Below, piece by piece: positions 1 to 54,551 of a stretch of DNA of 64,000 nucleotides; within the stretch, counting starts at the first letter, position 1, and every line of letters starts with the position of its first letter. Origin of the DNA: Sipunculus nudus (taxonomy: Eukaryota > Annelida > Sipuncula > Golfingiida > Sipunculidae). The notes beneath the pieces were generated by a model. That model was given only the letters and a program-made list of their open reading frames with translations, was not told the origin of the DNA and ran no database searches. The stretch lies in contig CM049309.1 of NCBI GenBank assembly GCA_026874595.1, positions 95,130,723 through 95,194,722 on the forward strand, in the 5' to 3' direction. Position numbers and translations under genes: made by a program.

Positions 1-3000
1 ATTACCTGTGTTCTCCTTGAACCAGTGTGGACTCATGATCAGTGGTATAATGAATTACCTGTGTTGTCCTTGAGCCAGTGTGGACTCATGATCAGTGGTA
101 TATCATAATGAATTACCTGTGTGGTCCTTGAACCAGTGTGGACTCATGATCAGTGGTATAATGAATTACCTGTGTTCTCCTTGAACCAGTGTGGACTCAT
201 GATCAGTGATATAATGAATTACCTGTGTTGTCCTTGAACCAGTGTGGACTCATGATCAGTGGTATATCATAATGAATTACCTGTGTGGTCCTTGAACCAG
301 TGTGGACTCATGATCAGTGGTATAATGAATTACCTGTGTTGTCCTTGAACCAGTGTGGACTCATGATCAGTGGTATATCATAATGAATTACCTGTGTTGT
401 CCTTGAACCAGTATGGACTCATGATCAGTGGTATCTCATAATGAATTACCTGTGTGGTCCTTGAACCAGTGTGGACTCATGATCAGTGGTATAATGAATT
501 ACCTGTGTTGTCCTTGAACCAGTGTGGACTCATGATCAGTGGTATAATGAATTACCTGTGTGGTCATTGAACCAGTGTGGACTCATGATCAGTGGTATAT
601 CATAATGAATTACCTGTGTTGTCCATGAACCAGTGCAGACTTATGTGTACAGTGCTACAATGAATTACCTGTGTGGTCCTTGAACCAGCGAGGACTCATG
701 TTCAGTGGTATAATAAATTACCTGTGTGGTCCTTGTACCAGCAAGGACTCATGTTCAGTGTTATCATAAATTACCTGTGTGGTCCTTGCACCAGTGTGGA
801 CTCATGATCAGTGGTATAATGAATTACCTGTGTTGTCCTTGAACCAGTGTGGACTCATGATCAGTGGTATATCATAGTGAATTACCTGTGTTGTCCATGA
901 ACCAGTGCAGACTTATGTGTACAGTGCTACAATGAATTACCTGTGTGGTCCATGAACCAGCGAGGACTCATGTTCAGTGGTATAATAAATTACCTGTGTG
1001 GTCCTTGAACCAGTGTGGACTCATGATCAGTGGTATAATGAATTACCTGTGTTGTCCTTGAACAAGTGTGGACTCATGATCAGTGGTATAATGAATTACC
1101 TGTGTGGTCATTGAACCAGTGTGGACTCATGATCAGTGGTATATCATAGTGAATTACCTGTGTTGTCCATGAACCAGTGCAGACTTATGTGTACAGTGCT
1201 ACAATGAATTACCTGTGTGGTCCTTGAACCAGCAAGGACTCATGTTCAGTGGTATAATAAATTACCTGTGTGGTCCTTGTACCAGCAAGGACTCATGTTC
1301 AGTGTTATCATAAATTACCTGTGTGGTCCTTGCACCAGTGTGGACTCATGATCAGTGGTATAATGAATTACCTGTGTTGTCCTTGAACCAGTGTGGACTC
1401 ATGATCAGTGGTATATCATAATGAATTACCTGTGTAGTCCGTTTACCAGTGCAGACATATGTGTACAGTACTTCAATGAATTACCTGCGTGGTCCTTGAA
1501 AAAGTGTGGACTCATGATCAGTGGTATATCATAATGAATTACCTGTGTAGTCCGTGAACCAGTGCAGACTTATGTGTACAGTACTTCAATGAATTACCTG
1601 TGTGGTCCTTGAACCAGCGAGGACTCATGTTCAGTGGTATAATAAATTACCTGTGTGGTCCTTGAACCAGTGTGGACTCATGATCAGTGGTATAATAAAT
1701 TACCTGTGTGGTCCTTGAACCAGTTTGGACTCATGATCAGTGGTATAATGAATTACCTGTGTGGTCCTTGTACCAGTGAGGACTCATGTTCAGTGGTATA
1801 ATAAATACCTGTGTGGTCCTTGAACCAGTATGGACTCATGATCAGTGGTATCTCATAATGAATTACCTGTGTTGTCCTTGAACCAGTGTGGACTCATGAT
1901 CAGTGGTATATCATAATGAATTACCTGTGTAGTCCGTTCACCAGTGCAGACATATGTGTACAGTACTTCAATGAATTACCTGTGTGGTCCTTGAAAAAGT
2001 GTGGACTCATGATCAGTGGTATATCATAATGAATTACCTGTGTTGTCCTTAAACCAGTGTGGACTCATGATCAGTGGTATATCATAATGAATTACCTGTG
2101 TAGTCCGTTCACCAGTGCAGACATATGTGCAGTGGTATAATAAATACCTGTGTGGTCCTTGAACCAGTATGGACTCATGATCAGTGGTATCTCATAATGA
2201 ATTACCTGTGTTGTCCTTGAACCAGTGTGGACTCATGATCAGTGGTATATCATAATGAATTACCTGTGTAGTCCGTTCACCAGTGCAGACATATGTGTAC
2301 AGTACTTCAATGAATTACCTGTGTGGTCCTTGAAAAAGTGTGGACTCATGATCAGTGGTATATCATAATGAATTACCTGTGTAGTCTGTGAACCAGTGCA
2401 GATTTATGTGTACAGTACTTCAATGAATTACCTGTGTGGTCCTTGAACCAGCGAGGACTCATGTTCAGTGGTATAATAAATTACCTGTGTGGTCCTTGAA
2501 CCAGTTTGGACTCATGATCAGTGGTATAATGAATTACCTGTGTGGTCCTTGTACCAGTGAGGACTCATGTTCAGTGGTATAATAAATACCTGTGTGGTCC
2601 TTGAACCAGTATGGACTCATGATCAGTGGTATCTCATAATGAATTACCTGTGTTGCCTTGAACCAGTGTGGACTCATGATCAGTGGTATAATGAATTACC
2701 TGTGTTCTCCTTGAACCAGTGTGGACTCATGATCAGTGATATAATGAATTACCTGTGTTGTCCTTGAACCAGTGTGGACTCATGATCAGTGGTATATCAT
2801 AATGAATTACCTGTGTGGTCCTTGAACCAGTGTGGACTCATGATCAGTGGTATAATGAATTACCTGTGTTGTCCTTGAACCAGTGTGGACTCATGATCAG
2901 TGGTATATCATAATGAATTACCTGTGTTGTCCTTGAACCAGTATGGACTCATGATCAGTGGTATCTCATAATGAATTACCTGTGTGGTCCTTGAACCAGT

Positions 3001-3726
3001 GTGGACTCATGATCAGTGGTATAATGAATTACCTGTGTTGTCCTTGAACCAGTGTGGACTCATGATCAGTGGTATAATGAATTACCTGTGTGGTTATTGA
3101 ACAAGTGTGGACTCATGATCAGTGGTATATCATAGTGAATTACCTGTGTTGTCCATGAACCAGTGCAGACTTATGTGTACAGTGCTACAATGAATTACCT
3201 GTGTGGTCCTTGAACCAGCGAGCCTCATGTTCAATGTTATCATAAATTACCTGTGTGGTCCTTGCACCAGTGTGGACTCATGATCAGTGGTATAATGAAT
3301 TACCTGTGTTGTCCTTGAACCAGTGTGGACTCATGATCAGTGGTATATCATAATGAATTACCTGTGTAGTCCGTTAACCAGTGCAGACATATGTGTACAG
3401 TACTTCAATGAATTACCTGTGTGGTCCTTGAACAAGTGTGGAATCATGATCAGTGGTATATCATAATGAATTACCTGTGTAGTCCGTGAACCAGTGCAGA
3501 CTTATGTGTACAGTACTTCAATGAATTACCTGTGTGGTCCTTGAACCAGCGAGGACTCATGATCAGTGGTATAATAAATTACCTGTGTGGTCCTTGAACC
3601 AGTGTGGACTCATGATCAGTGGTATAATGAATTACCTGTGTGGTCCTTGTACCAGCGAGGACTCATGTTCAGTGGTATAATAAATACCTGTGTGGTCCTT
3701 GAACCAGCGAGGACTCATGTTCAGTG
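1..3726 (-). repeat. 53/57-bp tandem array made of HSDL2 exon 4 end plus 5' splice site
   Basis: About 65-70 head-to-tail units fill this stretch, which is already in progress at base 1. Read on the minus strand a unit is about 40 bases matching the exon 4 end (coding PLxMSPxWFKDxT) followed by GTAATT or GTATTT and 7 more bases; many copies add four bases (TATC/ATCA). Three diverged classes are visible: exon-like units (GCGAGGACTCATGTTC on plus), the common TGTGGACTCATGATC class, and a GCAGACTTATGTGTACAG class. Classes recur in the same order, showing block duplication. Nearly every unit keeps ACACAG|GTA on the minus strand, so intron 4 opens with dozens of donor copies. Confidence 0.93.
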
Positions 3727-3791
3727 GGGGACTGTTGTTCAAGATGTGAGGGTTGCTGGCTTTCTTCAAATGTGGTACACAGTATTTTGAG
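3688..3791 (-). CDS. HSDL2: HSDL2 exon 4 (active-site serine region); source of the 53-bp array
   Basis: The acceptor is TTTCATCATTTCAG| and the donor is CACAG|GTATTT. Translation gives C-SKYCVPHLKKASNPHILN then NSPPLNMSPRWFKDHT, closely matching the HSDL2 stretch around the catalytic serine. It ends after one base of a codon expected to be Ala (AYTxAKYGM in relatives). The exon's last 40 bases with 13 intron bases make up the unit of the array that fills the rest of the window to base 1. The exon lies in the 290-bp non-array gap between two arrays and is too short and split to show as a long frame. Confidence 0.92.
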
Positions 3792-6700
3792 CTGAAATGA
3801 TGAAATAATGGTACTGTAGTTTTTTTCTATTAAACATACACTCTAATACTTATCTGCATTTTAATGTCTCAGGCAGTAAGGTTGAATATTAATTTTATTG
3901 CATCATCAATATACCTTTTTCATCTTAACAAAAGTCCCCTCAGTTTTACATTCACACACTGTTCTTTAATAAACAGGTTTTCTATCTTAAAACCATATGC
4001 TAGCTTACAAAATAAGGTTTGATGTTCATCATGAGGTCGTACTTACCAGAGGTATGTTCCTCTAGCCTTGATGTTCAACATGAGGTTGTACTTACCAGAT
4101 GTATGTTCCTCTAGCCTTGGTGTTAATCATGAGGTTGTACTTACCAGAGGTATGTTCCTCTAGCCTTGATGTTCATCATGAGGTTGTACTTACCAGATGT
4201 ATGTTCCTCTAGCCTTGGTGTTAATCATGAGGTTGTACTTACCAGAGGTATGTTCCTCTAGCCTTGATGTTCATCATGAGGTTGTACTTACCAGATGTAT
4301 GTTCCTCTAGCCTTGGTGTTAATCATGAGGTTGAACTTACCAGAGGTATGTTCCTCTAGCCTTGATGTTCATCATGAGGTTGTACTTACCAGAGGTATGT
4401 TCCTCTAGCCTTGGTGTTCATCATGAGGTTGTACTTACCAGATGTATGTTCCTCTAGCCTTGATGTTCATCATGAGGTTGTACTTACCAGAGGTATGTTC
4501 CTCTAGCCTTGGTGTTAATCATGAGGTCGTACTTACCAGATGTATGTTCCTCTACCCTTGGTGTTCATCATGAGGTTGAACTTACCAGAAGTATGTTCCT
4601 CTAGCCTTGGTGTTCATCATGAGGTTGAACTTACCAGAGGTATGTTCCTCTAGCCTTGATGTTCATCATGAGGTCGAACTTACCAGAGGTATGTTCCTCT
4701 AGCCTTGGTGTTCATCATGAGGTTGTACTTACCAGAAGTATGTTCCTCTAGCCTTGGTGTTCATCATGAGGTTGAACTTACCAGAGGTATGTTCCTCTAG
4801 CCTTGGTGTTCATCATGAGGTTGTACTTACCAGAAGTATGTTCCTCTAGCCTTGGTGTTCATCATGAGGTTGTACTTACCAGAAGTATGTTCCTCTAGCC
4901 TTGGTGTTCATCATAAGGTTGTACTTACCAGAGGTATGTTCCTCTTGTCTTGATGTTCATCATGAGGTTGAACTTACCAGAAGTATGTTCCTCTAGCCTT
5001 GGTGTTCATCATGAGGTTGAACTTACCAGAGGTATGTTCCTCTAGTCTTGATGTTCATCATGAGGTTGTACTTACCAGAGGTATGTTCCTCTAGTCTTGA
5101 TGTTCATCATGAGGTTGTACTTACCAGAGGTATGTTCCTCTAGTCTTGATGTTCATCATGAGGTTGAACTTACCAGAAGTATGTTCCTCTAGCCTTGGTG
5201 TTCATCATGAGGTTGTACTTACCAGAAGTATGTTCCTCTAGCCTTGGTGTTCATCATGAGGTTGTACTTACCAGAAGTATGTTCCTCTAGCCTTGGTGTT
5301 CATCATAAGGTTGTACTTACCAGAGGTATGTTCCTCTAGTCTTGATGTTCATCATGAGGTTGAACTTACCAGAAGTATGTTCCTCTAGCCTTGGTGTTCA
5401 TCATGAGGTTGAACTTACCAGAGGTATGTTCCTCTAGTCTTGATGTTCATCATGAGGTTGTACTAACCAGAGGTATGTTCCTCTAGTCTTGATGTTCATC
5501 ATGAGGTTGTACTTACCAGAGGTATGTTCCTCTAGTCTTGATGTTCATCATGAGGTTGAACTTACCAGAAGTATGTTCCTCTAGCCTTGGTGTTCATCAT
5601 GAGGTTGAACTTACCAGAGGTATGTTCCTCTAGCCTTGGTGTTCATCATAAGGTTGTACTTACCAGAGGTATGTTCCTCTAGCCTTGATGTTCATCATGA
5701 GGTCATACTTACCGGAGGTATGTTCATCTAGCCTTGATGTTCATCATGAGGTCATACTTACCGGAGGTATGTTCTTCTATTCTTGATGTTCATCATGAGG
5801 TCATACTTACCAGAGGTATGTTCTTCTATTCTTGATGTTCATCATGAGGTCATACTTACCAGAGGTATGTTCCTCTAGCCTTGGTGTTCATCATGAGGTC
5901 ATACTTACCAGAGGTATGTTCCTCTAGCCTTGGTGTTCATCATGAGGTTGTACTTACCAGAGGTATGTTCCTCTAGTCTTGATGTTTATCATGAGGTCAT
6001 ACTTACCAGAGGTATGTTCCTCTAGCCTTGGTGTTCATCATGAGGTCAAACTTACCAGAGGTATGTTCCTCTAGGGTTGATGTTCATCATGAGGTCGTAC
6101 TTACCAGAGGTAAGTTCCTCTAGCGTTGGTGTTCATCATGAGGTTGTACTTACCAGAGGTATGTTCCTCTAGCCTTGGTGTTCATCATGAGGTTGAACTT
6201 ACCAGAGGTATGTTCCTCTAGTCTTGATGTTCATCATGAGGTCATACTTACCGGAGGTATGTTCTTCTATTCTTGATGTTCATCATGAGGTCATACTTAC
6301 CAGAGGTATGTTCCTCTAGCCTTGGTGTTCATCATGAGGTTGAACTTACCAGAGGTATGTTCCTCTAGCCTTGGTGTTCATCATGAGGTCATACTAACCA
6401 GAGGTATGTTCCTCTAGCCTTGGTGTTCATCATGAGGTTGTACTTACCAGAGGTATGTTCCTCTAGTCGTGATGTTCATCATGAGGTCATACTTACCAGA
6501 GGTATGTTCCTCTAGCCTTGGTGTTCATCATGAGGTCAAACTTACCAGAGGTATGTTCCTCTAGGGTTGATGTTCATCATGAGGTCGTACTTACCAGAGG
6601 TAAGTTCCTCTAGCCTTGGTGTTCATCATGAGGTTGTACTTACCAGAGGTATGTTCCTCTAGCCTTGGTGTTCATCATGAGGTCGTACTAACCAGAATTA

Positions 6701-9700
6701 TGTTCCTCCAGCCTTGGTGTTCATCATGAGGTCAGACTTACCAGAGGTATGTTCCTCTAGCGTTGATGTTCATCATGAGGTTGTACTTACCAGAGGTATG
6801 TTCCTCTAGCCTTGGTGTTCATCATGAGGTCGTACTTACCAGAGGTATGTTCCTCTAGCCTTGATGTTCATCATGAGGTTGTACTTACCAGAGGTATGTT
6901 CCTCTAGCCTAAGTGTTCATCATGAGGTTGTACTTACCAGAGGTATGTTCCTCTAGCCTTGGTGTTAATCATGAGGTCGTACTTACCAGAGGTATGTTCC
7001 TCTAGCGTTGGTGTTCATCATGAGGTTGTACTTACCAGAGGTATGTTCCTCTAGCGTTGATGTTCATCATGAGGTCATATTTCTTCATGGAGGTAGCCTC
7101 AGTCCCGGTCAGACTGATGGCGCTTGCATTGTTCACCAGAATGTCAATGCCACCAAACTTGTCTACAGTCTGTTCTACAGCCCTCTTCACCTGATCTTCA
7201 TTCTGGATGTCAACAATACAGGGGAGACACTTCCCTCCAGCTGCCTCCACTAAAACAGAAACATCATCAGGTAAATGATGATCAATTCAGAGATAAAACA
7301 AGGGACCTATGGGTCACGACGCTCAGCTGTTATATATGATAAAAAAATATTATTTAGAAATGAGGCACATGCTGGTTTTGTGTGGTAATAAATATAAGCT
7401 GTATTATGAGTTGTTGTTGTTTAGCTTATGTATGATTTTGATAGTACAGGGAAGAGGATTGATTTCATTTATTTTATTAACATATGGAGTACTATTGTCA
7501 CACAGATTTTGACTTGGCCATATAACTTATAAGCAGAACATATAATATAAGTGTTTAACTATTTATTAAAAAAAATTACAAATATTGTCCCAAATATAAT
7601 TTTTATAAAAAGTAATAAGAGAATCATATGATTTTTTTAAATGAAATATAACTGATATGATTATTAAAAATTATATTAAAGAATATATTCATGAATGCAT
7701 TCATGAATACATTTTGAAAGTATTTGCACGAGTATTCATATACTTTCATTTTTACCTGAATTCCTATTCTTTATGCAAGAAATTTTATAATGGAGTACAT
7801 AATCATATTCGTATTTAAATACAATTACAAAGTATTCGCACCATGTCTGGTATTTATTCAGTTTCACCAACCAATGATGTTGAGAATCCAGAATATACAA
7901 AATTCACACATTTAAATAATGATCATAACTACCTGGTTTTATGGCTTTTATTTATATTAAAAAATAACTGTAAAAAATTCATTTTGGACTAATTTCACAT
8001 CAATGTACACACTAGACACAGTAGGAAGATTAATAGATTAATAGATTAATATTATCAACTGCATCTTTGTCTATCATTAATTTCCTTCATATGATCCCTA
8101 ATGATTAGTAATGAATAATATGATTTACTTCTTTATCATTAAAATTGAACTGAAAAATGCCATAGGTGACTGCATGGTGTTATTTGGAATATGTGACATT
8201 CTACCCATCGATACAAGATTCTTATATCATCAGTAACTGCAAGTTAATTTCCTGTTATTATAAACTAACAAATTCCTTTTCTATTTTTCTTTAATTTGTT
8301 ATTAAAAACCAATAAAAATTTATTAATTTATTGTTTATTGTTATGTTGTTGGTTAAAACTACTAGATGAGTTGGGTTGGACACCTGGATCAACTGTGGCT
8401 GGCCATAAGCTGCCTGGATTCCTGTATGCCTCGCCTCAAGCGTGCATAATTTGATGAAAGGTCAACAAGGTCAACATACAGGTGACTCAAGAGGGGCTTG
8501 AGAGAGCCAAAGTCTGACAGGGTCTCATAAAAAACATTAATAAAATTTCTTTCAGCTTTCTAAACTAAAAAGCTGAAATCCTAATGTGTGCATGATATGA
8601 AAATTATATCAACAGTGCTCACAGGACACAAACGTGCCATGGTCACAGTTGGGCAAAATTTAAGGTACTAATTTTATATTTATACTAATAACTTATAAAA
8701 TTTGAAAAATTCAGAACTAATTTTGGGTATTCAATTGAATCTTGATTAAATAATGTTACATCCCTGACAAAAAAATCTCTGGCTTCAGCAATGCCCTTGT
8801 TAAGGGAGTAAATAAATTTCTTGATTTTTTACAAAGTGCATTATGTTTGGGCCCATAACTTAAAACAATTACGCAATACTGACATCATTCTGGCATGTGC
8901 ATAGAGAATGAAAAATATGTATATTATTTATGATTAAAGTCAGATCAGTGGTTTTGATATTAGGCAGTCTTGAAGTGTGACAATGGGTTTTTAATGGAAA
9001 AATGAAGTTTTTCATTTATATCTTGAAGGTATTAAGTCCTAGTGACCAAATTCTTGGCATGGTAGGGGATTTTGGAGACATCTAACTGTATGCCGAATTT
9101 AAGGAACTAAGAGCTGAAGCTGGGGAGCTGAGCTCTTGCAAACTGCATAACACTAGCTTGATGTAAACAATATGTTACATGGTGCTTGAAAACTTATTAA
9201 AATCTACAGTTTTTGATCAACTGGTTTCAAATTTTTGGTGTTAACAGTTGAAATGCTAACAAAAACATGCTGTGAAAATTAAATCCACAGTACTTAGAGG
9301 AAAAAAACGTGCCATGGTCAAAGTTGGGCAAAATTTGAGGTACCAATTTTTTATTTTTATTAATATTTTAGAAAATTTAAAAGATTTTCATCTAATTTTG
9401 GGAATACAATTTAATTTTGATTAATTAAAGTTATATTACTGGAAAAAAGGTCGATAGCTTTAACATTTTTTGTGTTAAGTGATCAAATATCTTTCCTGAT
9501 TTTTTACAAAATGCATTATGTTTGGGCCCATAACTTTTTTAAATTAATTAATACAGACATAATTTCTGGCATGTACATAGGAACTATATAGAGGAATATT
9601 TATGGTAAATATGAGGAAAAACAGATGAGTGGTTTTGATATTAGACAGTCCTGAAGTGTGAAAATAGGTTTTTAATAAAAAATTGAGGTTTTTCCTTAAT

Positions 9701-12700
9701 TTCTCAAAGGAACGAAGTTGCAAAGACCCAGTTTTCCGCTTGGTAGGAGATCTTGGGGACATCTAACATTATGCCGAATTTTGGATTCCTAGGTCTTACG
9801 GTTTCAAAACGTGCCACATCTACGGACGGACGGACGGACGGACGGACGGACGGACGGACGGACGACGGACAATGGACCACGACTATAGCTCAGATGACTT
9901 ATAGTCAGCTGAGCTAAAAATGAATCACTAGATAGAAAAATGTTAAGTGAGAATTTATAATTAATGCATTAAGGTAAACATAGATGTAAAGGGGAAGAGT
10001 AACCCAGGTGTGGCTACATTTCAATAATCAATCAAAAATGGTATGAGCCAATCCATCAAGTCAACCTTGCTGCACCAATCAAGAGAGTTTTTTTTTTACT
10101 TTTTGTTTTTTAATGGTCTCATTTTACAACTTGTTTCAAACATGACAAACATGAACAGAGCTACTGTATAAAGGTTGGTAACTGGATAATCAGAAGAGGT
10201 GGTCTTAATGACAGGTTTTACAAGTGTTACCTTCTTTGGCTGCAGTGTAGATGGTCCCTGGCAGCTTTGGGTGGGGTTCTGCTGTTTTGGCAGCAATCGC
10301 GATATTGGCCCCATCCCTGGCACACTTAAGGGCGATGGCCTTCCCAATACCGCGACTTGCTCCTGATATGAAGATGGTCTTCCCTGCCAGTGCTCTGTAA
10401 CCATCAATGAACTTAATCACTAATTATCTAATACCATTAATAGTATACATAACTGGCATTTTATTAACTAGTATTGTAATTGCTAAAATGTTATTACTTA
10501 GTTTAACTGTATTAAAATCTCTTAATTTTAGGTTTAAATATATATGTTTGACTTAAGATATACTGCATTTTGCTTTTCTTATTCAGTTATAACAAGAATA
10601 TGATCCTCTCCTTGAGTATGCTTACTCAGCACTTGAGTAAACTTACCAGGTTAGTACAGTCATACTTAACTGTTACAACGGATCCAGATGATGGACCTAC
10701 CGTGTTAGGAAGGACCTGCATATGATGATTATAAACATGTTTAAATATTGTCATGTGGAACCAAGGGACTTTGTATAAACCTCATGAGGCTGACTTATCA
10801 TGTGTATTTTATATAACATGCAGGAAAATTAAAACAGAACGTCAAGGTGATCCATCTTCAAACTTGACCGTGAATAATTTGATATGCATTAGGACTGAAG
10901 AAATTAAATTCCTGAGTTGTATACTTTTAGAGATATCCCACTCAGAAGGTCAAATATGAGAAATCTGATAAAAATTTTTAAAAAATCAGAAATTGTAGGT
11001 GGCACCCCCACTCTTGTACAGCAGTTACAGACAATCAATGCCAATATTACAGGTTTGGGTTTTATCTTGATAAAACTTGTTTAATCCAGGACAATGGATT
11101 AAACTGGGTTTTATCCAGTTTAATCCAATTTTATCCAGATTATACAGGATTTAACTGGATCAAACTAATAATCACCTTGTTAAATATAATTAAATTAACC
11201 AAAATGCTAATCTGAAAAAATAAGTTCAGAAGGTTTATTAATATATTAACAATATGTTTTATATCCAATTGGCAATTGCCTTCAGGTTCATGTATCACTG
11301 TGCATATTGGCTAGTATTCAATTTCTCAATAGGATGTATAATTTTTATAGCATCATCCTCAGCCATCAAATATTTACTCATAGTCACAGGGCAGGCAAGC
11401 ATGGTGACTTTTGCAGCCCAATTGACCTATCCATGAACTCTATATGACCATAATTGCATATTCATTCAATGAATAATCATAAGCATTGGACTAATGAGCA
11501 ACCAATCAGGTGACCATAAACATTATACAGCATCAATCATCCGACAAAAACAAAATTTGCCTAATTTGACAGAGCTCTGTCAAACAGAACCCATGTAGTG
11601 TGTTCCAGTACCCATGTTGGCATGTTTTCCGGGATATTATTTTTTATACAAAGGAGACAGTATAAAAAGTTTTAGGCTATAGTTTGCATGAGCCATTTCT
11701 CAGACTCCCAAGTAAATAATAATGTCTTACCTGGCACGTAATTCGTATGAGACAAATAATCCAGAATATTGCAAGATAGTTCATAATGACCGCGATATAT
11801 GAAACTACAGCGATACAAGTTGATGACATCAGTCAATACGAAGTCAAGCGTCATCGACCTTTGTGAAGTCATTATTAAGTCGTTAGCAGCTCACTCTCAA
11901 CATGGGCATGGAAGACCTTCTATGTAGGAGTGTTTTGGGGGCTCATTATAATAATTATGTTAAAAGGGCTGAGTGTTTGGGCTGTGGTGGATAGGTCAAT
12001 TGTCAACAACTTGCAGATTCTTTGGAGGAGGATGCCTAAATGATTTTGATCCATGACTGGCTGTCATGACTTGCTGGTTGTCAAATGGTGACCCACTTTT
12101 GCTGCTTGTGTAAACATGTCTTACCAGTTGCGAAAGGGACAAGGAATCTACTACCCAACATTCAGAGAAACCAACTTGAGCAAGATAACTTTTCAAGCAT
12201 TTTATCATTTGTGTCTGACAGGTCACCCCCACAAAATAATGGACAGCTGATACCACTCAATATCTTAGGTCATTTATGTAAAAAATGATTGGATTATGCA
12301 CATCTCTCTCAACTACAGGAGTGTATACAAGCCAAGAGGTCAAACCACGCTTATATGAAATGTCATTTTAAACAGGCCTAAGCGGTTCAGCATTTTCTAC
12401 ACTGCGAATCATAAAATGCAACTACAAGGATACTGTACACGTTGCAATGCAACATAATAATAAATCAGATAATGTATTTTTACATAGGAAGTGCTTATTT
12501 CCACTCCCCCAGGGAGTGGAAAAAAGGGAAGCTAGGAGTTACCAAACCTCATGTTAGATGGAACAGATAAGCGTTTGTTAGAATAGATATTCATTTACAG
12601 CAGCTCTATAGGATAACATTGATAGATATAAATATAAAATAAACAAGGGACCCATGGGTCACGGCGCTTAGCTGTTATATATGATAAAATAAAATGATTT

Positions 12701-17919: not shown

Positions 17920-18150
17920 CCACCAACGAATTACCAAGGATGGACAAGATCCGCGGCAGATTCGAGGAGACCATTGACCACATTATTGCAGGCATGACAG
18001 TATAGCTTGAACAGAAGCCAAACACTGTGAATGACACACTGGCAGAAGAAGTGATATTCTGTTGGACATGCCAATCCAAACTGATGAAGAGAAAAAAAGC
18101 CAACAGGTCAGACATAATCATCGAAGACATGCATAAGACAGAAAACCTGT
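17920..18150 (+). pseudogene. Non-LTR retrotransposon pol, C-terminal fragment with endonuclease start (left half)
   Basis: Translation gives FEETIDHIIAG, matching the zinc-finger-like ETIDHIISGCP segment seen in the C-terminal part of R2/NeSL-like retrotransposon proteins. An in-frame stop follows, then EEVIFCWTCQSKLMKRK and RSDIIIEDMHKT, which corresponds to the first half (RPDIVI.D) of a restriction-like PD-(D/E)xK endonuclease. The frame then runs into the 41-bp satellite. The right half of the same protein resumes at 29030. The fragment is 5' truncated and inactive. Confidence 0.7.
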
Positions 18151-20468: not shown

Positions 20469-20473
20469 TAAAT

Positions 20474-20491
20474 TGGAGGCTCGTCCGGGAT
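20474..20491 (+). promoter_or_regulatory. Primer-binding site, tRNA-Pro type
   Basis: TGGAGGCTCGTCCGGGAT, five bases after the 5' LTR, differs by one base from the well-known tRNA-Pro primer site (TGGGGGCTCGTCCGGGAT). Confidence 0.88.
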
Positions 20492-20634
20492 GCTTAATAG
20501 TTTTTAAAATTTATTAGGCCTTGCCCTAGACATATCATTTACAATACATTGTTTATAAGATTACACATTGTTAACATTCCATTGTTTATAAGATTTATCT
20601 CAGTGGTTTTTTGTTATTGTTTAAACATCTTAAT

Positions 20635-25250: not shown

Positions 25251-25362
25251 TGTTTATGAAATGTTTTAAAGAGATGTTTATGTAATTTTGTAAAAAAAGA
25301 TGGTTTTTGAGATACTGAAAAGATTTAGTGATTGTGATCCCAAAAAGAAAGTTTTCCGAGAA

Positions 25363-35231: not shown

Positions 35232-35730
35232 ACTCGGGACAGCAGGCTCCTCTTGAGGGACAGCAGGCTCCTCTTGAGGGACAATAGGCGTCTCTTGAGG
35301 GACAGCAGGCTCCTCTTGAGGGACAGCAGGCTCCTCTTGAGGGACAGCAGGCTCCTCTTGAGGGACAATAGGCTTCTCTTGAGGGACAGCAGGCTCTTCT
35401 TGAGGGACAGCAGGCTCCTCTTGAGGGACAATAGGCGTCTCTTGAGGGACAGCAGGCTCCTCTTGAGGGACAGCAGGCTCCTCTTGAGGGACAGCAGGCT
35501 CCTCTTGAGGGACAATAGGCTCCTCTTGAGGGACAATAGGCTTCTCTTGAGGGACAGCAGGCTCCTCTTGAGGGACAGCAGGCTCCTCTTGAGGGACAGC
35601 AGGCTCCTCTTGAGGGACAGCAGGCTCCTCTTGAGGGACAGTAGGCTCCTCTTGAGGGACAGCAGGCTCCTCTTGAGGGACAGTAGGCTCCTCTTGAGGG
35701 ACAGTAGGCTCCTCTCGAGGGACAGCAAGG
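35232..35730 (+). repeat. 21-bp tandem array
   Basis: About 23-24 units of GACAGCAGGCTCCTCTTGAGG with GACAATAGGC and GACAGTAGGC variants. The period is a multiple of three, so four frames stay open (LLLRDSR, CCPSRGA, SLKRSLL). No start, flanking exon or splice signal marks any as a gene. A poly-G run follows at 35731. Confidence 0.93.
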
Positions 35731-40900: not shown

Positions 40901-41890
40901 GTTGTGTGGGTAACCTCTTGTATCTTGCTTGCTGTTGTGTGGGTAACCTCTTGTATCTTGCTTGCTGTTGTGTGGGTAACCTCTTGTATCTTGCTTGCTG
41001 TTTTGTGGGTAACCTCTTGTATCTTGCTTGCTGTTTTATGGGTAACCTCTTGTATCTTGCTTGCTGTTGTGTGGGTAACGTCTTGTACCTTGCTTGGTGG
41101 TGTGTGGGTAAACTATTGTATCTTGCTTGCTGTTGTGTGGGTAACTTCTTGTAACTTGCTTGCTGTTGTGTGGGTAACCACTTGTACCTTGCTTGCTGTT
41201 GTGTGGGTTACCTCTTGTACCTTGCTTGCTGTTGTGTGGGTAACCTCTTGTATCTTGCTTGCTGTTGTGTGGGTAACCTCTTGTATCTTGCTTGCTGTTG
41301 TGTGGGTAACCTCTTGTATCTTGCTTGGTGGTGTGTGGGTAACCTCTTGTATCTTGCTTGCTGTTGTGTGGGTAACCTCTTGTATCTTGCTTGGTGGTGT
41401 GTGGGTAACCTCTTGTACCTTGCTTGCTGTTGTGTGGGTAACCTCTTGTATCTTGCTTGCTGTTGTGTGGGTAACCTGTTGTATCTTGCTTGGTGGTGTG
41501 AGGGTAACTTCATGTATCTTGCTTGCTGTTGTGTGGGTAACTTCTTGTACCTTGCTTGCTGTTGTGTGGGTAACCTCTTGCATCTTGCTTGGTGGTGTGT
41601 GGGTAACTCTTGTATCTTGCTTGCATTTGTGTGGGTAATCTCTTGTACCTTGCTTGCTGTTGTGTGGGTAACTTCTTGTACCTTGCTTGCTGTTGTGTGG
41701 GTAACCTCTTGTACCTTGCTTGCTGTTGTGTGGGTAACCTCTTGTATCTTGCTTGGTGGTGTGTGGGTAACCTCTTGTATCTTGCTTGGTGGTGTGTGGG
41801 TAACCTCTTGTACCTTGCTTGCTGTTGTGTGGGTAACCTCTTGTACCTTGCTTGCTGTTGTGTGGGTAACCTCTTGTACCTTGCTTGTTT
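37937..41890 (+). repeat. 33-bp minisatellite, about 120 copies
   Basis: The unit is GTGGGTAACCTCTTGTACCT plus TGCTTGCTGTTGT (33 bp). As 33 is a multiple of three, several frames on both strands are open for hundreds of codons, including a 900-codon plus frame with Cys/Leu-rich LLYLACCCVGN units and a minus frame TASKVQEVTHT. Frame slips occur inside it. A three-variant block (TTCTGTGGG, then TTGGGTGGG, then GATTGCTGGCATATGGG) recurs at least six times, showing higher-order duplication. On the left it starts at CTCAG|GTTAAC after a short acceptor-like stretch. Confidence 0.94.
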
Positions 41891-41899
41891 TGTGGCTGT

Positions 41900-43579: not shown

Positions 43580-45935
43580 AGCGTCTCTGCTGTGACCCGG
43601 ATGGTTTTGTTTTGTTCTGCAGGATCCGTCTTTGTTGTATCCCGGATGGTTTTGTTTTGTTCTGCAGGATCCGTCTTTGTTGTGACCAAGGATGGTTAAT
43701 TTCTTTTGTTCTGCAGGATCCGTCTTTGTTGTGACCAAGGATGGTTAATTTCTTTTGTTCTGCAGGATCCGTCTTTGTTGTATCCCGGATGGTTTTGTTT
43801 TGTTCTACAGGATCCTTCTTTGATGTGACCAAGGATGGTTAATTTCTTTTGTTCTGCAGGATCCGTCTTTGAGGTGACCCCGGGTGGTTTTGTATTGTCC
43901 TACAGGATCCGTCTTTGTTGTGACCCCGGGTGGTTTTTTTTAAGGATCCTTCTTTGATGTGATCCAGGATGGTTTTGTTTTGTTCTGAAGGATCCGTCTT
44001 TGTTGTGACCCTGGGTGGTTTTGTATTGTCCTACAGGATCCGTCTTTGTTGTGACCCCGGGTGGTTTTGTATTGTCCTACAGGACCCGTCTTTGTTGTAT
44101 CCCGGATGGTTTTGTTTTGTTCTGCAGGATCCGTCTTTGTTGTGAACCCGGGTTTTGTTTTTTTTTCTGCAGGATCCGCCTTTGATGTGACCCCAGATGG
44201 TTTTGATTTGTTCTACAGGATCCTTCTTTGATGTGACCAAGGATGGTTAATTTGTTTTGTTCTGCAGGATCCGTCTTTGAGGTGACCCCGGGTGGTTTTG
44301 TTTTGTTCTGCAGGACCCGTCTTTGTTGTGACCCAGGGTGGTTTTGTTTTTTTCTGCAGGATCCGTCTTTGTTGTGACCCCGGGTGGTTATGTTTTGTTC
44401 TGCAGGACCCGTCTTTGTTGTGACCCAGGGTGGTTTTATTTTGTTCTACTGGATCCGTCTTTGTTGTGACCCAGGGTGGTTTTGTATTGTCCTACAGGAT
44501 CCGTCTTTGTTGTGACCCCGGGTGGTTTTGTATTGTCCTACAGGACCCGTCTTTGTTGTATCCCGGATGGTTTTGTTTTGTTCTGCAGGATCCGTCTTTG
44601 TTGTGACCCCGGGTTTTGTTTTTTTTTCTGCAGGATCCGCCTTTGATGTGACCCCAGATGGTTTTGATTTGTTCTACAGGATCCTTCTTTGATGTGACCA
44701 AGGATGGTTAATTTGTTTTGTTCTGCAGGATCCGTCTTTGAGGTGACCCCGGGTGGTTTTGTTTTGTTCTGCAGGACCCGTTTTTGTTGTGACCCAGGGT
44801 GGTTTTGTTTTTTTCTGCAGGATCCGTCTTTGTTGTGACCCCGGGTGGTTATGTTTTGTTCTGCAGGACCCGTCTTTGTTGTGACCCAGGGTGGTTTTAT
44901 TTTGTTCTACTGGATCCGTCTTTGTTGTGACCCAGGGTGGTTTTGTATTGTCCTACAGGACCCGTCTTTGTTGTATCCCGGATGGTTTTGTTTTGTTCTG
45001 CAGGATCCGTCTTTGTTGTGACCCCGGGTTTTGTTTTTCTTTCTGCAGGAAATGCCTTTGATGTGACCCCAGATGGTTTTGATTTGTTCTACAGGATCCT
45101 TCTTTGATGTGACCAAGGATGGTTAATTTGTTTTGTTCTGCAGGATCCGTCTTTGAGGTGACCCCGGGTGGTTTTGTTTTGTTCTGCAGGACCCGTTTTT
45201 GTTGTGACCCAGGGTGGTTTAGTTTTTTTCTGCAGGATCCGTCTTTGTTGTGACCCCGGGTGGTTATGTTTTGTTCTGCAGGACCCGTCTTTGTTGTGAC
45301 CCAGGGTGGTTTTATTTTGTTCTACTGGATCCGTCTTTGTTGTGACCCCGGGTGGTTTTGTATTGTTCTGCAGGATCCGTCTTTGTTGTGACCCTGGGTG
45401 GTTCTGTTTTGTTCTGCAGGATCCATCTTTGTTGTGACCCCGGGTGGTTTTGTTTTGTTCTGCAGGACCCGTCTTTGTTGTGACCCCGGGTGGTTATGTT
45501 TTGTTCTGCAGGACCCGTCTTTGTTGTGACCCAGGGTGGTTTTATTTTGTTCTACTGGATCCGTCTTTGTTGTGACCCAGGGTGGTTTTGTATTGTTCTG
45601 CAGGATCCGTCTTTGTTGTGACCCTGGGTGGTTCTGTTTTGTTCTGCAGGATCCATCTTTGTTGTGACCCCGGGTGGTTTTGTTTTGTTCTGCAGGACCC
45701 GTCTTTGTTGTGACCCAGGGTGGTTTTGTTTTGTTCTGCATGATCCGTCTTTGTTGTGACCCCCGTAGTCTTTGTTTTGTTCTGCAGGATCCGTCTTTGT
45801 TGTGACCCCGGGTGGTTTTGATCTGTTCTGCAGGATCCGTTTTTGTTGTGACCCTGGGTGGTTTTGTTTTGTTCTGCAGGATACGTCTTTGATGTGACCC
45901 CGGATGTTTTTGTTTTGTTCTGCAGGATCCAAGAA
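43580..45935 (+). repeat. 46-bp tandem array made of the Ly6 gene's 3' splice site
   Basis: About 51 units of roughly 46 bp. Each contains GGTTTTGTTTTGTTCTGCAG|GATCC, a T-rich tract and CAG followed by the first five bases of the downstream exon, then GTCTTTGTTGTGACCCCGG. The last unit runs straight into the real exon (TTTTGTTCTGCAG|GATCCAAG). Blocks of about 460 bp (10 units) and 415 bp (9 units) are repeated almost unchanged (44031, 44492, 44907). Long minus-strand frames here have no independent support. Confidence 0.93.
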
Positions 45936-46000
45936 TAACATGAAGATGGACGTTAGGATTATAGCGTTCCTGGCACTGGGGTTGGCCGGGACGGCTGTCA
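45926..46000 (+). CDS. Ly6/uPAR-like protein, exon 1 of coding region (signal peptide)
   Basis: The exon begins GATCCAAGAATAAC after the last array acceptor; ATG is at 45940. It encodes MKMDVRIIAFLALGLAGTAV, a typical secretory signal peptide, and ends at GTCA|GTGAGT with one base of a Ser codon. The presence of an acceptor just before it implies an upstream non-coding exon. Confidence 0.88.
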
Positions 46001-48117
46001 GTGAGTCTGGGCATTTTTGTTTGATCACTTATCTGTTTTAAGTCACTAAGGGATACCATTTATTTAGATTATTCATTTAATATCTCCTTAATATACAGGA
46101 CTGAACCAATGCATGTAATAAATAAGCTCGCATGCTTGCAAGATTTTCGTGTTACATTGTTTGGCTTATATTTAAACTGATCTCACAAAAATTCCAATTC
46201 CTGTACGGCATACAATATGACTGCTGGTTTCAGTTTTAAATTCATGACTCTTCTTAGGATGTGCCGGTTTATAAATTTTTTGGCATATAATTATATTTTA
46301 TTGGACATTTATGTCTTGTTACGATGTGAAGCCAGTCACGTCCGTTTGAGGATGCAAGTCCTTGATATTGAAATATTAAATTATCATCAGTCCATGTTTC
46401 CTTAGAGCTGTGTTCTCTCTGTCCAGGTTTAAAGTGCTACACGTGCTCATCTACCGCCACTGCTGTGGCCAAAGGTGAATGCGGTGATCATTTTGAACCC
46501 AAAACAGATGAACTTCTCACAACTTGCAACGCAACGGCGGAGGAATTCTTCTGTCGCGTGAGTATTTAGACCATAAACCGTCCTTTAGATATCAAGACTT
46601 AGTCTTCGACCTTAAACATCCAAAAACAAGTCCAACACACCTTATGTTATGTTATGTTATGTTTGACTGACTCTCGTGAACACAAATGCAGGCAAAGTGG
46701 TTATGGTTAATTATTCAGACAGGTTATTGTGAAAATTTCTGAGAAAGAAAAATTAAACTGTGTTACTATTCTACGAGCTTCACATGTTTTATATCACATA
46801 GCGAAGTTGTTATATTATCTTGATGACTTTATGGAGTATGTCCTTGAAACTTTAACAGACAGTTTATTCAGTTGAACGTCACACTTACAGCTTCACAGTT
46901 GAACAAGACAGGAGCCAGTGCCTGATGACATTAAGGTTACACATTCCGGTTGTACACACAGTTTCACATATACTAACAAAACTCTGGTAGGAGGCAGCTC
47001 CTGGTTCACAATGATTGTCATAACTCTTCTGGTTATTATTTGAGAGGGAAGTCCATTACTTACTTATATATTATTCCAAGCTTGCAACCAGTTCCATCTT
47101 AGTGTGCCACACGTCCGCCATGTCCTACAAGGGTGGTCAGATTTGCACGAGGTGTACATCTCTGTCTCTTAGTTCTTCTCTCTCCTATGTCTGGATTTCC
47201 AATCCTTGTATACACATCACTGGTCATTATTGCTTTGATAACTAATCAGCTTGAATGCTTTGATTAACTGCAGTAGCATTAAGTGTGAACATCTCTCAGC
47301 CTGACTGGCACTATAAATAAAGGTTTGATTTTCTTTAAAAGATTCAATTGCCATTCCCTGAACTCCATGTGTCTTCCTGCTTGAACATAGTTTGCCTACA
47401 CTGAACTGCTAATTATATCTACAGGTAATTAGCCATACAGATACATATTTAAAATTACAAAGAATCTTATGCACACTTTCATACATTTACAACCAAGTAA
47501 TAAATTGGTAATAACACGTCTGTCATATTTATACAATGATTCGAAACTATATAGAATGTTTAAAGCTGTTTCCCAGACTAGAGTTCCCTTGAACAGTTTT
47601 CAGGAATCATGCAAACTAAGGCGTCATATCGATATTCTGTAATAATCAGGTGACCCTCATGGTATGCTAAACGGTTGTCCTGTACCATAACAGAGACTGG
47701 CCTCCGTCGTCTCTGAAAGGAATATCAACTCGTGACCACGACAAGCAAAAATATAAATCAAAACCGTTGTGCATTCATTTATGTGTGGTAGTTGACGTCA
47801 AGGTCCGTTGTTCTACCAAAAGGGAAAAATGTGATCTATGACCTTCCATTCAAGTAGCCCAAAGAGTTGCTTCTCTGTCGATTTGTGCATTCTGTGCTAG
47901 TTAAGCTGTAATGATAAAAGTTGTTATTTTGAAACGTACAGCGGGCCTGGACATATTCTGACGTATATTATATGTCCTATATAGGCCGAAGAGCTTCAAC
48001 GGCTGCTTCTCTCTCTCTGTTGGATCATGATAGCCGAGCACAAAAGGTGTTTCCTGTGAGTGTGCGCTCTCTCTGTCTTGGAAAAATGACAGCCGAGTGC
48101 TGACTGTGATGTTAGCA

Positions 48118-48156: not shown

Positions 48157-50057
48157 GAGATGTAAAAACTTCTTTACATCAAGAAAGGCGCCTAATCTTC
48201 GCTTATATGAGGAATGTTATCTCAGTTTTTATCCTAAAAGTTAAAAGAAAATATAGATTTTCAGTGGGATACTGTCATAATAAGATATGTACAAATATTT
48301 TTGCATTTTTTTATGGCGCTGCGGTCACGGTAAGAAATTTATATACCGGTATGTTTTCATTGAAGACCTGGCGAGTGATGATTTTAATATTTGCGAACCT
48401 GAAAGGGACGCTGGGGCATCCAGGTTTTCGATTAATTTTATTGGTAACTATTATTTGACGTATAAATAATAGGTTGATGAAGACATGAACGATGAATTTA
48501 ATGGACGTTAAAAGGAAGGAAACTATTCCTGGAGAAAGAAACGGAAATATGTGTCGCGGACCGGGGGTAAGGCAGGTCCGCCCCATGTCACAGGAAGAAC
48601 CCAAGACAAAGTGGATGGATGAACTTTATTCTGAAGAAGAAAGACCGTGGTCAGCTTGTTGCCAACAAGAGGAGCAAGGCTGGACTGACGTGACAGTTCC
48701 GAGACCTCGTAGACGTTCCGGAGCTGTCACGCCTCATTGCCCAAACCACCCCAAAACCGGTCCGACAAAACATCGTATTCTTTCTCCCAGGATTTTCGTC
48801 GGCCACGTATGCAGGCCATACTACGCAAGGGAAACCGTTTAATGACCCTTGACCAGGAGGGACTTTTCTCGAGTGTCACTCCGGATTGACAGACAAAATG
48901 AAAAAAAAAACATGGGGGTTTATTTCCCCGTGTTACATATGCATACCATGTTAGTAGCAGAAGCGGACAAAAGTGAAGCCGAAACCGTTTTTTAAACCGT
49001 ATAAGACCAATTTTGAGTCCTGGAAACCCCGCCGCCACCCTACCCCCATTCCTTTACCGGAAATGCTGACCTTGTATTAGGTCCTGTCATTTGTGCCCCT
49101 GAGTTGAACCCCTCCTTTTCATAAAGTGAGAGTTACGTGTTTTTCACATTTACTGACCGCGCTCGAGGGCCAGAGCCTGGGTCAAATGTCAGACCAAACA
49201 TGCTTGAATCCCTCACTGTAAGCTTGGTTTATTCATTTGCACAATATAATTCTTAATTCTGTGCTGCATTAGACCGCACAGGCAATCCGGTCTTTGCTTA
49301 GGCAGTTCGGCTGTTTTCGGTGGAAACCTCCATGCAGATCATAAAAAAAAATGTAAAAATCGCTCAAAATTAAGTATGCATTAAAATTATTTATTCTCCG
49401 ATGCAAAACAAACAACATGGTTAAAATAATAAATTGCAAAACATTATCCAAAGGTTTGCATAAATGCTTTTCAAAATTGCTTCATTCTAATGTGTTATCT
49501 TAGGCGGAACGAACTGAAATGATTTGTGGTTGAATAATCAAACAGTAATTTCTATGTCAATTAAAATAAAGATAAGGGTAAAAACTATTACGACCTGGAC
49601 TATATGAACCAGACTAGGAAATAAAACTGTAGGACACAAGATTAGTTCTGGCAACACCTTGATATTCGTCTACAATTTATCAAGGATTATTCAATTATAA
49701 ATCAGTATAAATCTTTAAGGAATCTGTGTTTGATAAGTCTCTTGGGAGAGGGTTATTCTTGTGACGAAAGCTAGGACAGCCAACTTTTAGTTACATTTTC
49801 TTTTCATAACATAGTTACTTTCCAGAAATTTCGGGATTAACATATCCATTTATAATTGCTTTCAGAAAGAGAAGACTGGGGTTAATTCAGCGTGGAACAG
49901 GGTGACACGGAGCTGCGCAAGGGAGTGTGAAACCCGGAACGTCGCCTACATCAAGCGAGTCACGTGTTGTAAAACTGACATGTGTAACGGCGCAGGCGCG
50001 GTCACCTTTGGGGTGATGACCATGACCTTTGCTCTCATGTCAGCAATTTGCTTTTAA
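45940..50057 (+). CDS. Ly6/uPAR (three-finger) domain GPI-anchored protein, three exons
   Basis: Joining 45940-46000, 46427-46557 and 49866-50057 gives 384 nt, a 127-residue protein. After the signal peptide comes one LU domain with ten cysteines: LKCYTC, GECG, LLTTCNAT (with an N-glycosylation site), FFCR, RSCARECE, VTCCKTDMCNG. It ends in a hydrophobic tail (VMTMTFALMSAICF) after NGAGA, the usual arrangement for GPI attachment at the outer cell surface. Partner and role are unknown; family members are receptors, ligands or ion-channel modulators. Exon phases (1, 0) and splice sites are clean. The unusual feature is the array of acceptor copies before exon 1. Confidence 0.9.
46427..46557 (+). 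CDS. Ly6-like gene, exon 2
   Basis: The acceptor is TTCTCTCTGTCCAG| and the donor CGC|GTGAGT. The 131 bases encode the first half of the LU domain, from LKCYTC to EEFFCR, carrying cysteines 1-5. Confidence 0.92.
48118..48150 (+). repeat. (CT)n microsatellite
   Basis: About 16 CT units; the poly-RE frame on the minus strand is its artefact. Confidence 0.92.
48492..48842 (+). other. Isolated 116-codon frame in the intron, possibly element-derived
   Basis: Starts MNLMDVKRKETIPGERNG and includes RPRRRSG and HCPNHPKTGPTKHRILSP. It has an ATG, balanced composition and no introns, but no recognised domain. It could be a remnant of a retroelement ORF1 or a chance frame. Confidence 0.3.
49866..50057 (+). 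CDS. Ly6-like gene, exon 3 (LU domain end and GPI signal)
   Basis: The acceptor is ATTGCTTTCAG|. The 192 bases encode KEKTGVNSAWNRVTRSC through CCKTDMCNG and the hydrophobic C-terminus, ending in TAA at 50055-50057. An AATAAA polyadenylation signal lies near 50457. Confidence 0.92.
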   Translation, partial: KEKTGVNSAWNRVTRSCARECETRNVAYIKRVTCCKTDMCNGAGAVTFGVMTMTFALMSAICF

Positions 50058-53844: not shown

Positions 53845-53884
53845 GTGGGGTTGAAAAATATGCTCTAGAGATTCGAGAAGTTAA

Positions 53885-54468
53885 GACCATCCGGCATCAA
53901 TGTTATTTACTTTGCACCGCAGGCCCATTGGCATCAATGATATTTTGGGTCACCAGCATCAATGTTATTTTGTTAAGACAATCAGGTAAACGGCATCAAT
54001 GATATTTTGTTAATATCATCAGGTCCCCGGCATCAATGTTATTTTTATGTACACCATCAAGTCACCGACATCAATGTTATTTTGTTTAGACCATCAGGTC
54101 CCCGGAATCAATGTTATTTTGTTTAGACCATCAGGTCACCGGCATCAATGATATTTTGTGTACACCATCAGGTCATCAGCATCAATTATATTTTGTGTAA
54201 ACCATCAAGTCACCGACATAAATGTTATTTTGTTTAGACCATCAAGTCACCGGCATCAATGATATTTTGTTTAGACCATCAGGTCACCGGCATCAATGAT
54301 ATTTTGTTTAGACCATCAGGTCACCGGCATCAATGATATTTTGTGTACACCATCAAGTCACCAGCATCAATGTTATTTTGTGTACACCTTCAGGTCACCG
54401 ACATCAATGATATTTTTTTAGACCATCAGGACACCGATATCAATGTTATTTTGTTTATACATCATCAG
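53885..54468 (+). repeat. 37-bp tandem array carrying a 3' splice site, ending at an exon
   Basis: About 15-16 units of 37 bp. Each has ATCAATGATATTTTGTTTAGACC then ATCAG|GTCACCGGC, a T-rich tract and CAG. The last unit ends TTTATACATCATCAG| at 54468, immediately followed by a candidate exon. Confidence 0.88.
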
Positions 54469-54551
54469 GCCATATGGGGATCAAGATTACCATGGTTTCA
54501 TCAGGAAGCTTTATTCTCGGTCTGCTGCTGATGGCCCAGACCGCTTTTTGA
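54469..54551 (+). CDS. Candidate terminal exon with hydrophobic C-terminus
   Basis: Joined in phase to 53760-53844 this gives GHMGIKITMVSSGSF then ILGLLLMAQTAF and a TGA at 54549-54551, a tail resembling a GPI-attachment or membrane signal. Alternatively ATG at 54474 could open a signal peptide. Other frames are also short and open, so the reading is uncertain. Confidence 0.4.

What the first reader, a model, noticed from the sequence alone, without database searches (positions are those of the whole stretch)
1..54551. Splice-junction satellites as a recurrent class in this genome
At least three arrays (1-3726, 4019-7076, 43580-45935) and probably a fourth (53885-54468) start or end exactly at an exon edge, with the splice site inside the repeat unit. 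Unit lengths (49, 53, 46, 37) and sequences are unrelated, so this is a repeated mechanism rather than one element. Tandem duplication across AG|GT junctions is known as a route to intron gain; massive expansion at existing junctions is not something I can name as described. Possible causes are replication slippage at R-loops or selection for redundant splice sites.
Basis: inference. Interest (0 to 1): 0.93.

Follow-up and report, generated by a model that had tools for sequence, protein, structure and literature searches.

The report
Minisatellites spanning exon-intron junctions
In this animal genome, short stretches that contain the end of an exon and its splice site have been copied head-to-tail, up to dozens of times, into the neighbouring intron; this is seen at a few percent of the exons sampled and resembles the "mirages" already described in amphioxus.

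Summary
Arrays 1-3727 and 4019-7075 (minus strand) are units of exon end plus 5' splice site of two consecutive exons of an HSDL2-type gene; the spliced product aligns to human HSDL2 without a gap at either junction. Array 43582-45930 carries the inferred 3' splice site of a Ly6-like gene. The fourth array is unproven. No confirmed array ends exactly at the exon edge; they reach 5-40 nt into the exon.

The genome is held (1.43 Gb), so I tested myosin and kinesin exons elsewhere. Of 115 exons (230 edges), 5 edges carry a junction-spanning array of at least 2.5 copies and 2 more a two-copy version: a recurrent class. A dedicated mechanism is not shown. Junctions lie in arrays no more often than nearby intron and less often than introns at large, although array ends are placed there three to four times more often than at random (4 or 5 against 1.1-1.2; P 0.006-0.03).

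Best explanation: ordinary minisatellite birth in introns, junction-spanning duplications surviving because they regenerate an intact splice site.

The parts
7036..7248 (-). HSDL2-type gene, coding exon A (ends ...KYDLMMNINARGTYL); donor GT at 7035-7034
   Evidence: sequence read; alignment to human HSDL2 3kvo; tblastn
4019..7075 (-). Array 2: 62 x 49 bp; each unit = last 40 nt of exon A + 9 nt of intron (GTAAGTACA and variants); GT kept in 62/62 units, GTAAGT in 59/62
3688..3790 (-). HSDL2-type gene, coding exon B (SKYCVPHLKKASNPHILNNSPPLNMSPRWFKDHT); donor GT at 3687-3686
1..3727 (-). Array 1: 67-68 units of 52-58 bp; each = about 39 nt of exon B end + 13-19 nt of intron; runs a short way past the window's left end
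   Evidence: seven consecutive units repeated identically 46 units away
10231..10394 (-). HSDL2-type gene, exon upstream of exon A (ISGASRGIGKAIAL...); no array at its donor
   Evidence: read; TRF table; tblastn
43582..45930 (+). Array 3: about 51 x 46 bp; unit = 41 nt intron ending in a 3' splice site (TTTTGTTCTGCAG) + 5 nt of exon (GATCC); AG kept in 46/51 units
   Evidence: 45 of 50 in the cruder count; splice site inferred, no RNA
45926..46000 (+). Ly6-like gene, first coding exon (ATG at 45940)
   Evidence: read; Pfam PF17064 E 1.9e-5 for the spliced product, just under the curated cut-off
46427..46557 (+). Ly6-like gene, second coding exon
   Evidence: read
49876..50057 (+). Ly6-like gene, third coding exon with stop
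   Evidence: read
53948..54464 (+). Array 4: 14 x 37 bp; claimed junction array, not confirmed (adjoining ORF 54411-54548 ends in a hydrophobic tail but has no family match)

Best explanation
These are ordinary minisatellites born inside genes. A short tandem duplication (about 30-80 bp) that happens to span an exon-intron junction carries the exon end plus a complete 5' or 3' splice site. The copy that stays next to the exon is still an intact junction, so splicing and protein are unharmed and the duplication survives. It then expands on the intron side by slippage, unequal exchange or conversion to tens of copies, while coding constraint fixes the exon side. The spliceosome must use the exon-proximal site, because the neighbouring copies would break the protein. 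Shown: anatomy, private units (arrays 2 and 3), recurrence, block duplication inside array 1, collinearity with human HSDL2. Inferred: the order of events, the survival filter and splice-site choice.
For: Unit anatomy in the window. Same anatomy at independent exons: a myosin-XVIII-like 5'ss (36 bp x 28), kinesin 3'ss (31 bp x 15, cut off by the fetched stretch), KIF17-like 3'ss (61 bp x 13, likewise cut off), myosin 3'ss (82 bp x about 6), weak kinesin 3'ss (41 bp x 2.9), and two two-copy 5'ss duplications that look like early stages, C12:77121957 (35 bp) and C4:13958886. Units of arrays 2 and 3 private to their locus. Tandem copies (two or more) at the junction are about as frequent as 6-110 bp into the intron and absent at 24, 40 and 60 nt into the exon (0 of 220 each), as expected if arrays arise in introns and exon interiors are protected. 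Splice dinucleotides show no extra conservation. HSDL2 donor copies 1-3 give a stop or frameshift. The window is array-rich (33% of bases against 4.6% in the sample) and lies about 2.3 Mb from the end of contig C4, so several junction arrays in one gene need no special cause.
Against: Array ends sit at exon edges three to four times more often than random placement gives (4 or 5 against 1.1-1.2; P 0.02-0.03 or 0.006). In HSDL2, with seven exon matches in the region read, three junctions are spanned and a fourth nearly touched; local array density must account for that. The survival-filter idea can absorb the excess but was not tested on its own. Array 2 shows no fall in identity with distance from the exon (0.91-0.94 in blocks of ten units), so its growth direction is not visible. 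No RNA data; one assembly only.
Confidence: 0.72

Rival explanations
1. A junction-directed mutational process: co-transcriptional splicing, U1/spliceosome occupancy or R-loops at exon-intron boundaries provoke tandem duplication there, so junctions are a true hot spot of array birth.
For: Three- to fourfold excess of array ends at exon edges; both 5' and 3' splice sites affected; three consecutive HSDL2 donors have arrays at or within about 10 bp of them; two two-copy, possibly young, duplications in the sample both span a donor.
Against: Coverage at the junction is not above the adjoining intron and below that of introns at large (4 edges against 10.8 expected). Coding-strand GC skew has opposite sign at 5'ss and 3'ss arrays, so a G-rich R-loop is not common to them. 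Only 22 TRF arrays in the sample.
Confidence: 0.17
2. Selection for redundant or regulatory splice sites: the extra copies act as back-up sites, decoys or U1-binding arrays and are kept for that.
For: Donor GT is kept in 62/62, 67/67 and 28/28 units of the three 5'ss arrays.
Against: In array 2, 28 of 49 columns are invariant, GT among them without being special; 23-63% of adjacent position pairs are at least as conserved as the splice dinucleotide in the eight arrays; 5 of 51 Ly6 units do not keep AG; using HSDL2 donor copies 1-3 breaks the frame.
Confidence: 0.06
3. Chance: arrays are so dense that some must touch exons; nothing links them to junctions.
For: Expected number by random placement is 1.1-1.2, not zero; coverage at junctions is no higher than in nearby intron. 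In the long segments with full flanks TRF has only 2 of 18 arrays on an edge; the other 2 come from the short stretches (4 arrays, 38 edges). For five of the nine large array loci of the window I know of no adjoining exon, though I searched little.
Against: Observed 4 (TRF) or 5 of 22 arrays; P 0.02-0.03 or 0.006. The units contain the exon end and splice site rather than merely adjoining them.
Confidence: 0.05

Closest known systems
Amphioxus 'mirages' (Adh3, globin, TnC and PGBD5 genes; passages read in PMC3087553 and PMC3902484; Canestro et al. 2002, cited there, was not held)
   Same: Tandem repeats spanning exon-intron boundaries, at both 5' and 3' boundaries, with splice signals in many but not all units; units of 10-160 bp.
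   Different: Copy numbers that I saw printed are small (6 and 3 in two haplotypes of BflGb6); here up to 62-68 copies over 3-4 kb. The paper reports that cluster boundaries escape homogenisation; here the KIF17-like array shows diverged copies next to the exon but array 2 shows no such gradient. The present genome (1.43 Gb, lineage not identified) is larger than I recall for Branchiostoma, and its HSDL2 is only about 80% identical to Branchiostoma's.
Human CBS 31-bp VNTR, c.1444_1467+7(16_21) (passages read in PMC2630376)
   Same: By its name the unit is the last 24 nt of an exon + 7 nt of intron, 16-21 copies: the same architecture as array 2 (40 + 9), with the 5' splice site inside.
   Different: One human locus; shorter and polymorphic; here many loci and longer arrays.
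Intron gain by tandem genomic duplication of AGGT (review passages in PMC3443670; human examples, passages in PMC2812944)
   Same: Tandem duplication of splice-site-bearing sequence.
   Different: There duplication of exon sequence creates a new intron; here introns are enlarged. Whether the HSDL2 intron positions are old was not tested.
Ordinary intronic minisatellites (for example the 38-bp repeat of human TERT intron 6, start of abstract seen in the listing; the CeRep25B repeat in worm introns, passages in PMC4039745)
   Same: Unit length, copy number, tandem growth.
   Different: Not described there as containing a splice junction.

Membership tests
Mirage (minisatellite of an exon-intron boundary) | Tandem units that contain the exon edge and adjoining intron | tested here: met
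Mirage (minisatellite of an exon-intron boundary) | Splice signals in many but not all units | tested here: met
   62/62, 67/67, 11/12, 46/51, 28/28, 15/15, 12/13, 7/7 units keep the splice dinucleotide
Mirage (minisatellite of an exon-intron boundary) | Regular mRNA is still made from the exon-proximal site | not testable with these tools
   Indirect only: the product is collinear with human HSDL2 and donor copies 1-3 break the frame
Mirage (minisatellite of an exon-intron boundary) | Length polymorphism, germline or somatic | not testable with these tools
   single assembly
Mirage (minisatellite of an exon-intron boundary) | Cluster boundaries less homogenised than the inside | tested here: inconclusive
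   Diverged exon-proximal copies in the KIF17-like array (read); no gradient in array 2; other arrays not measured
Mirage (minisatellite of an exon-intron boundary) | Described in cephalochordates | tested here: inconclusive
   Lineage not identified; HSDL2 is 79-81% identical to Branchiostoma and 81% to a sponge, Dysidea avara; the Ly6-like protein found no relative at E 1e-3
Dispersed satellite or mobile introner | Same unit at many loci | tested here: not met
   Units of arrays 2 and 3 found only in their own array (one pattern each, up to 2 mismatches); the other arrays were not tested
Intron gain by tandem genomic duplication | Intron newly created inside an ancestral exon | not tested
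   No intron positions of relatives were available

The most novel reading that the evidence does not exclude
Exon-intron junctions are a genuine birth site of minisatellites in this genome: a process linked to splicing or transcription duplicates junction-spanning segments, giving thousands of genes arrays of ready-made splice sites, a standing supply for new exons, shifted boundaries and intron growth.
Probability: 0.17. Interest if true: 0.8.

Novelty: new member of a known kind. Interest (0 to 1): 0.45.

Why it matters
If about 2% of exon edges carry such arrays genome-wide (5 of 230 here, 95% interval 0.7-5%), the spliceosome of this animal routinely picks one site out of many near-identical copies spaced 31-82 bp apart, and keeps the frame. 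That makes splice-site choice by exon definition, and intron growth or sliding by tandem duplication, directly testable with RNA and population long reads. It also warns that gene predictors may mis-call exon ends there.

Tried and rejected
(1) Genome-wide download: not available; replaced by loci and stretches around Pfam-matched exons.

(2) Dispersed satellite or mobile element: rejected for arrays 2 and 3, whose units were found only in their own array.

(3) R-loop and redundant-site readings: tested and not supported.

(4) Array 4 and the end of the 53-bp array at 57902 as junction arrays: no family match for the adjoining ORFs. The other four array loci without a known exon were not searched systematically.

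(5) Kinesin exon C13:59088609: my automatic splice finder first placed its acceptor inside a degenerate 17-bp array; reading it puts the acceptor further on, so I dropped it. In one search the 'any tandem duplication' count of 7 (P 0.002) contains this case and one duplication lying within an exon (C2:52516382); I do not rely on it. Arrays of at least 5 copies gave 3 against 0.74 (P 0.033).

(6) Case C14:65442721 was counted by eye; TRF ends that array 86 bp short of the edge because two copies have diverged. The probe test finds it independently.

(7) C1:7594162 is weak (2.9 copies, 67% identity); after edge correction it reaches only 1 nt into the exon by TRF, and the probe test does not find it. 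Nor does that test find the two-copy case C12:77121957, whose unit has only 3 nt of exon. The two-copy case C4:13958886 was flagged and read.

(8) Species: I first thought of a mollusc from recall of repeat motifs; no mollusc is among the names shown in the best 120 (many rows have no name) and one search found nothing, so the lineage is left open.

(9) Rfam (gathering threshold) and tRNA scans of the window: no match.

(10) Scripts that failed: 64 (part), 75 (time limit), 85 (part); repeated in 66, 77, 88.
Full report
WHAT IS THERE. The window is animal nuclear DNA (G000:C4:95130723-95194722 of a 1.43-Gb assembly in 153 contigs). Besides shorter repeats, TRF lists nine large minisatellite loci with periods of 21-61 bp (the 41-bp one is cut in two by a retroelement), together 21.3 of 64 kb. 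Read on the minus strand, 4019-7075 is 62 units of exactly 49 nt, the first being the last 40 nt of a coding exon plus GTAAGTACA. 1-3727 is a chain of 52-58-nt units, the first being about 39 nt of the next exon's end plus its 5' splice site. The exons belong to an HSDL2-type SDR gene: the joined peptide matches human HSDL2 (3kvo, E 1.4e-86) and runs through both junctions without a gap. On the plus strand, 43582-45930 repeats a 46-bp unit that ends in TTTTGTTCTGCAG|GATCC and meets an exon with the start codon of a three-exon gene with a weak Ly6/Quiver-type match (just under Pfam's cut-off). The fourth array has no proven exon. The edges are not exact: the arrays include 5-40 nt of exon.

BEYOND THE WINDOW, SAME GENE. 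In 16 kb to the left (L039, L040) a 43-bp x 13.9 array spans the 3' splice site of a later HSDL2 exon (unit contains ATTAATCCTCAG|GTATATGGAC), and a 75-bp x 10.5 array starts about 10 bp after the 5' splice site of another exon without including it. Of the junctions of the seven HSDL2 exon matches found, three are spanned and a fourth is nearly touched.

INDEPENDENT SAMPLE. They were chosen by score or by contig order, apart from three 10-kb stretches chosen because exons lie close together there (L041-L043). 110 of the 201 matches fell in the 219,603 bases fetched by then and 5 more were added (a sixth, L094, had been counted already): 115 exons, 230 edges. Dynein and SNF2 matches came without DNA and were not used. 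TRF finds 22 arrays (at least 2.5 copies, 4.6% of bases) in the first 110 exons' stretches, and 4 of their 220 edges lie inside one. Reading them: a myosin-XVIII-like donor...AGCATACTGACAG|GTCAGTTATAGC..., 36 bp x 28; a kinesin acceptor, TTACAG|GCATTGTTCCAC, 31 bp x 15 (cut off by the end of the stretch); a myosin acceptor, TTACAG|ATGAAGGATGAGAGG, 82 bp x about 6; a weak kinesin acceptor, 41 bp x 2.9. A fifth, a KIF17-like acceptor, GATTGCAG|AGCATTTGATCATATTTTT, 61 bp x 13, is plain to the eye but TRF stops 86 bp short because two copies have diverged. Two further edges have just two copies of a donor-spanning unit: C12:77121957, 35 bp, and C4:13958886...GAAAAGTCCAG|GTATGTA... followed by ...GAAAAGTCCAG|GTAGGTA.... 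The 5 added exons have none by TRF. Family names beyond myosin and kinesin are my reading of the translated exons. So 5 of 230 edges, on 5 of 115 exons, carry an array: a recurrent class, measured on two gene families in one genome (95% interval for edges 0.7-5%).

IS THE JUNCTION A TARGET? The measures disagree in part. (a) Coverage: a 24-nt probe has at least two near copies within 260 bp at 4 of 219 junctions (1.8%), at 1.4-2.4% of points 6-110 bp into introns, at 2.8-5.5% of points 150-1000 bp in, and at 0 of 220 points 24, 40 and 60 nt into exons. If edges were random intron points, 10.8 of 220 would lie in TRF arrays; 4 do. The junction is not a peak; it is simply not avoided. (b) Placement: when the 22 arrays are thrown at random on the same sequence, forbidden to enter exons by more than 30-32 nt, 1.1-1.2 span an edge on average; observed 4 (P 0.02-0.03) or 5 with the C14 case (P 0.006). 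The tolerance was taken from the data, so these P values are lenient, and two of the four TRF cases come from the 19 exons of the short stretches. The two measures fit together if arrays that come near an exon tend to include its edge rather than stop just short.

HOW IT MOST LIKELY WORKS. A duplication that stops a few nucleotides inside the intron can part a splice site from its branch point or exon; one that contains the whole junction hands the exon an intact copy. The second kind therefore survives more often (inference). After that, growth is ordinary: array 1 contains a block of seven consecutive units repeated identically 46 units away, and TRF reports higher-order periods of 272 and 415 bp in arrays 1 and 3. 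Growth is one-sided because exon interiors are protected (inference; array 2 has no identity gradient that would show it). For HSDL2, splicing at donor copies 1, 2 or 3 instead of the first gives a stop or frameshift, so the exon-proximal donor must be the working one (inference from frame; no RNA seen). Mirage genes in amphioxus are reported to be spliced normally (passages read in PMC3087553, and PMC3902484).

Redundant splice sites: in eight junction arrays 23-63% of neighbouring position pairs are at least as conserved as the splice dinucleotide, and 5 of 51 Ly6 units, 1 of 12 and 1 of 13 in two other arrays do not keep it. R-loops: coding-strand GC skew is -0.06, -0.13, -0.07 for the three 5'ss arrays and +0.12, +0.18, +0.05, +0.12, +0.20 for the five 3'ss arrays. 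Neither is supported as a general cause; a splicing-linked cause of another kind remains possible.

WHY SO MANY HERE. The window is seven times richer in array bases than the sample (33% against 4.6%; the sample lies close to exons of conserved genes, so the comparison is rough) and lies about 2.3 Mb from the end of a 97.5-Mb contig. Enrichment of minisatellites towards chromosome ends is known in some animals (recalled), so local density alone may explain the cluster; I did not test other chromosome ends. The window was also picked because it was striking.

KNOWN KIND. Nine paper searches found two close precedents: mirages, and the human CBS c.1444_1467+7(16_21) repeat, 24 nt of exon plus 7 of intron, 16-21 copies (passages read in PMC2630376). 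I found no report of 60-copy junction arrays or of a genome-wide frequency in those searches; subscription papers are mostly not held, and Canestro et al. 2002 was not held. The lineage of this genome is unknown to me: nearest named HSDL2 proteins are from Dysidea avara (81%) and Branchiostoma (79-81%) (which scored the 8000 candidates sharing most words).

Noticed in passing
window 19565-26265: An LTR retroelement (reverse transcriptase, integrase-like and zinc-knuckle coding remnants, broken frames, LTR-like ends, all read by eye) sits inside a 41-bp minisatellite that continues on both sides (18136-19563 and 26266-29050).
   Followed up: no
window 7296-9843 and 12641-15188: Two direct copies, 91% identical over about 2.6 kb (blastn), on either side of an HSDL2 exon (10231-10394), with ACGG-rich tracts near their ends: an interspersed element or segmental duplication.
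   Followed up: partly
window 61844-62858: Decayed non-LTR-like reverse transcriptase frames, seen in the ORF list.
   Followed up: no
G000 contigs C101, C108, C62, C77, C138, C130, C61, C66, C69, C72, C74, C83, C89, C90: SNF2-domain matches in long uninterrupted frames (625-5066 aa) on small contigs, unlike most of the exon-sized matches on C1-C15: probably bacterial contigs (symbionts or contaminants) in the assembly.
   Followed up: no
G000:C2:44849337-44852248 and C6:39308505-39316227: Four successive exon matches to the same part of the myosin head (profile 109-153) and four to the same part of the dynein AAA_6 domain (73-123): possible sets of mutually exclusive exons.
   Followed up: no
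window 31152-32255, 35236-35727, 37939-41894, 56044-57902: Four further large minisatellites (61, 21, 33, 53 bp); the 33-bp one is strongly strand-asymmetric (AT skew about -0.6). I know of no exon next to them, but only the ORF after the last one was tested (no Pfam match).
   Followed up: partly
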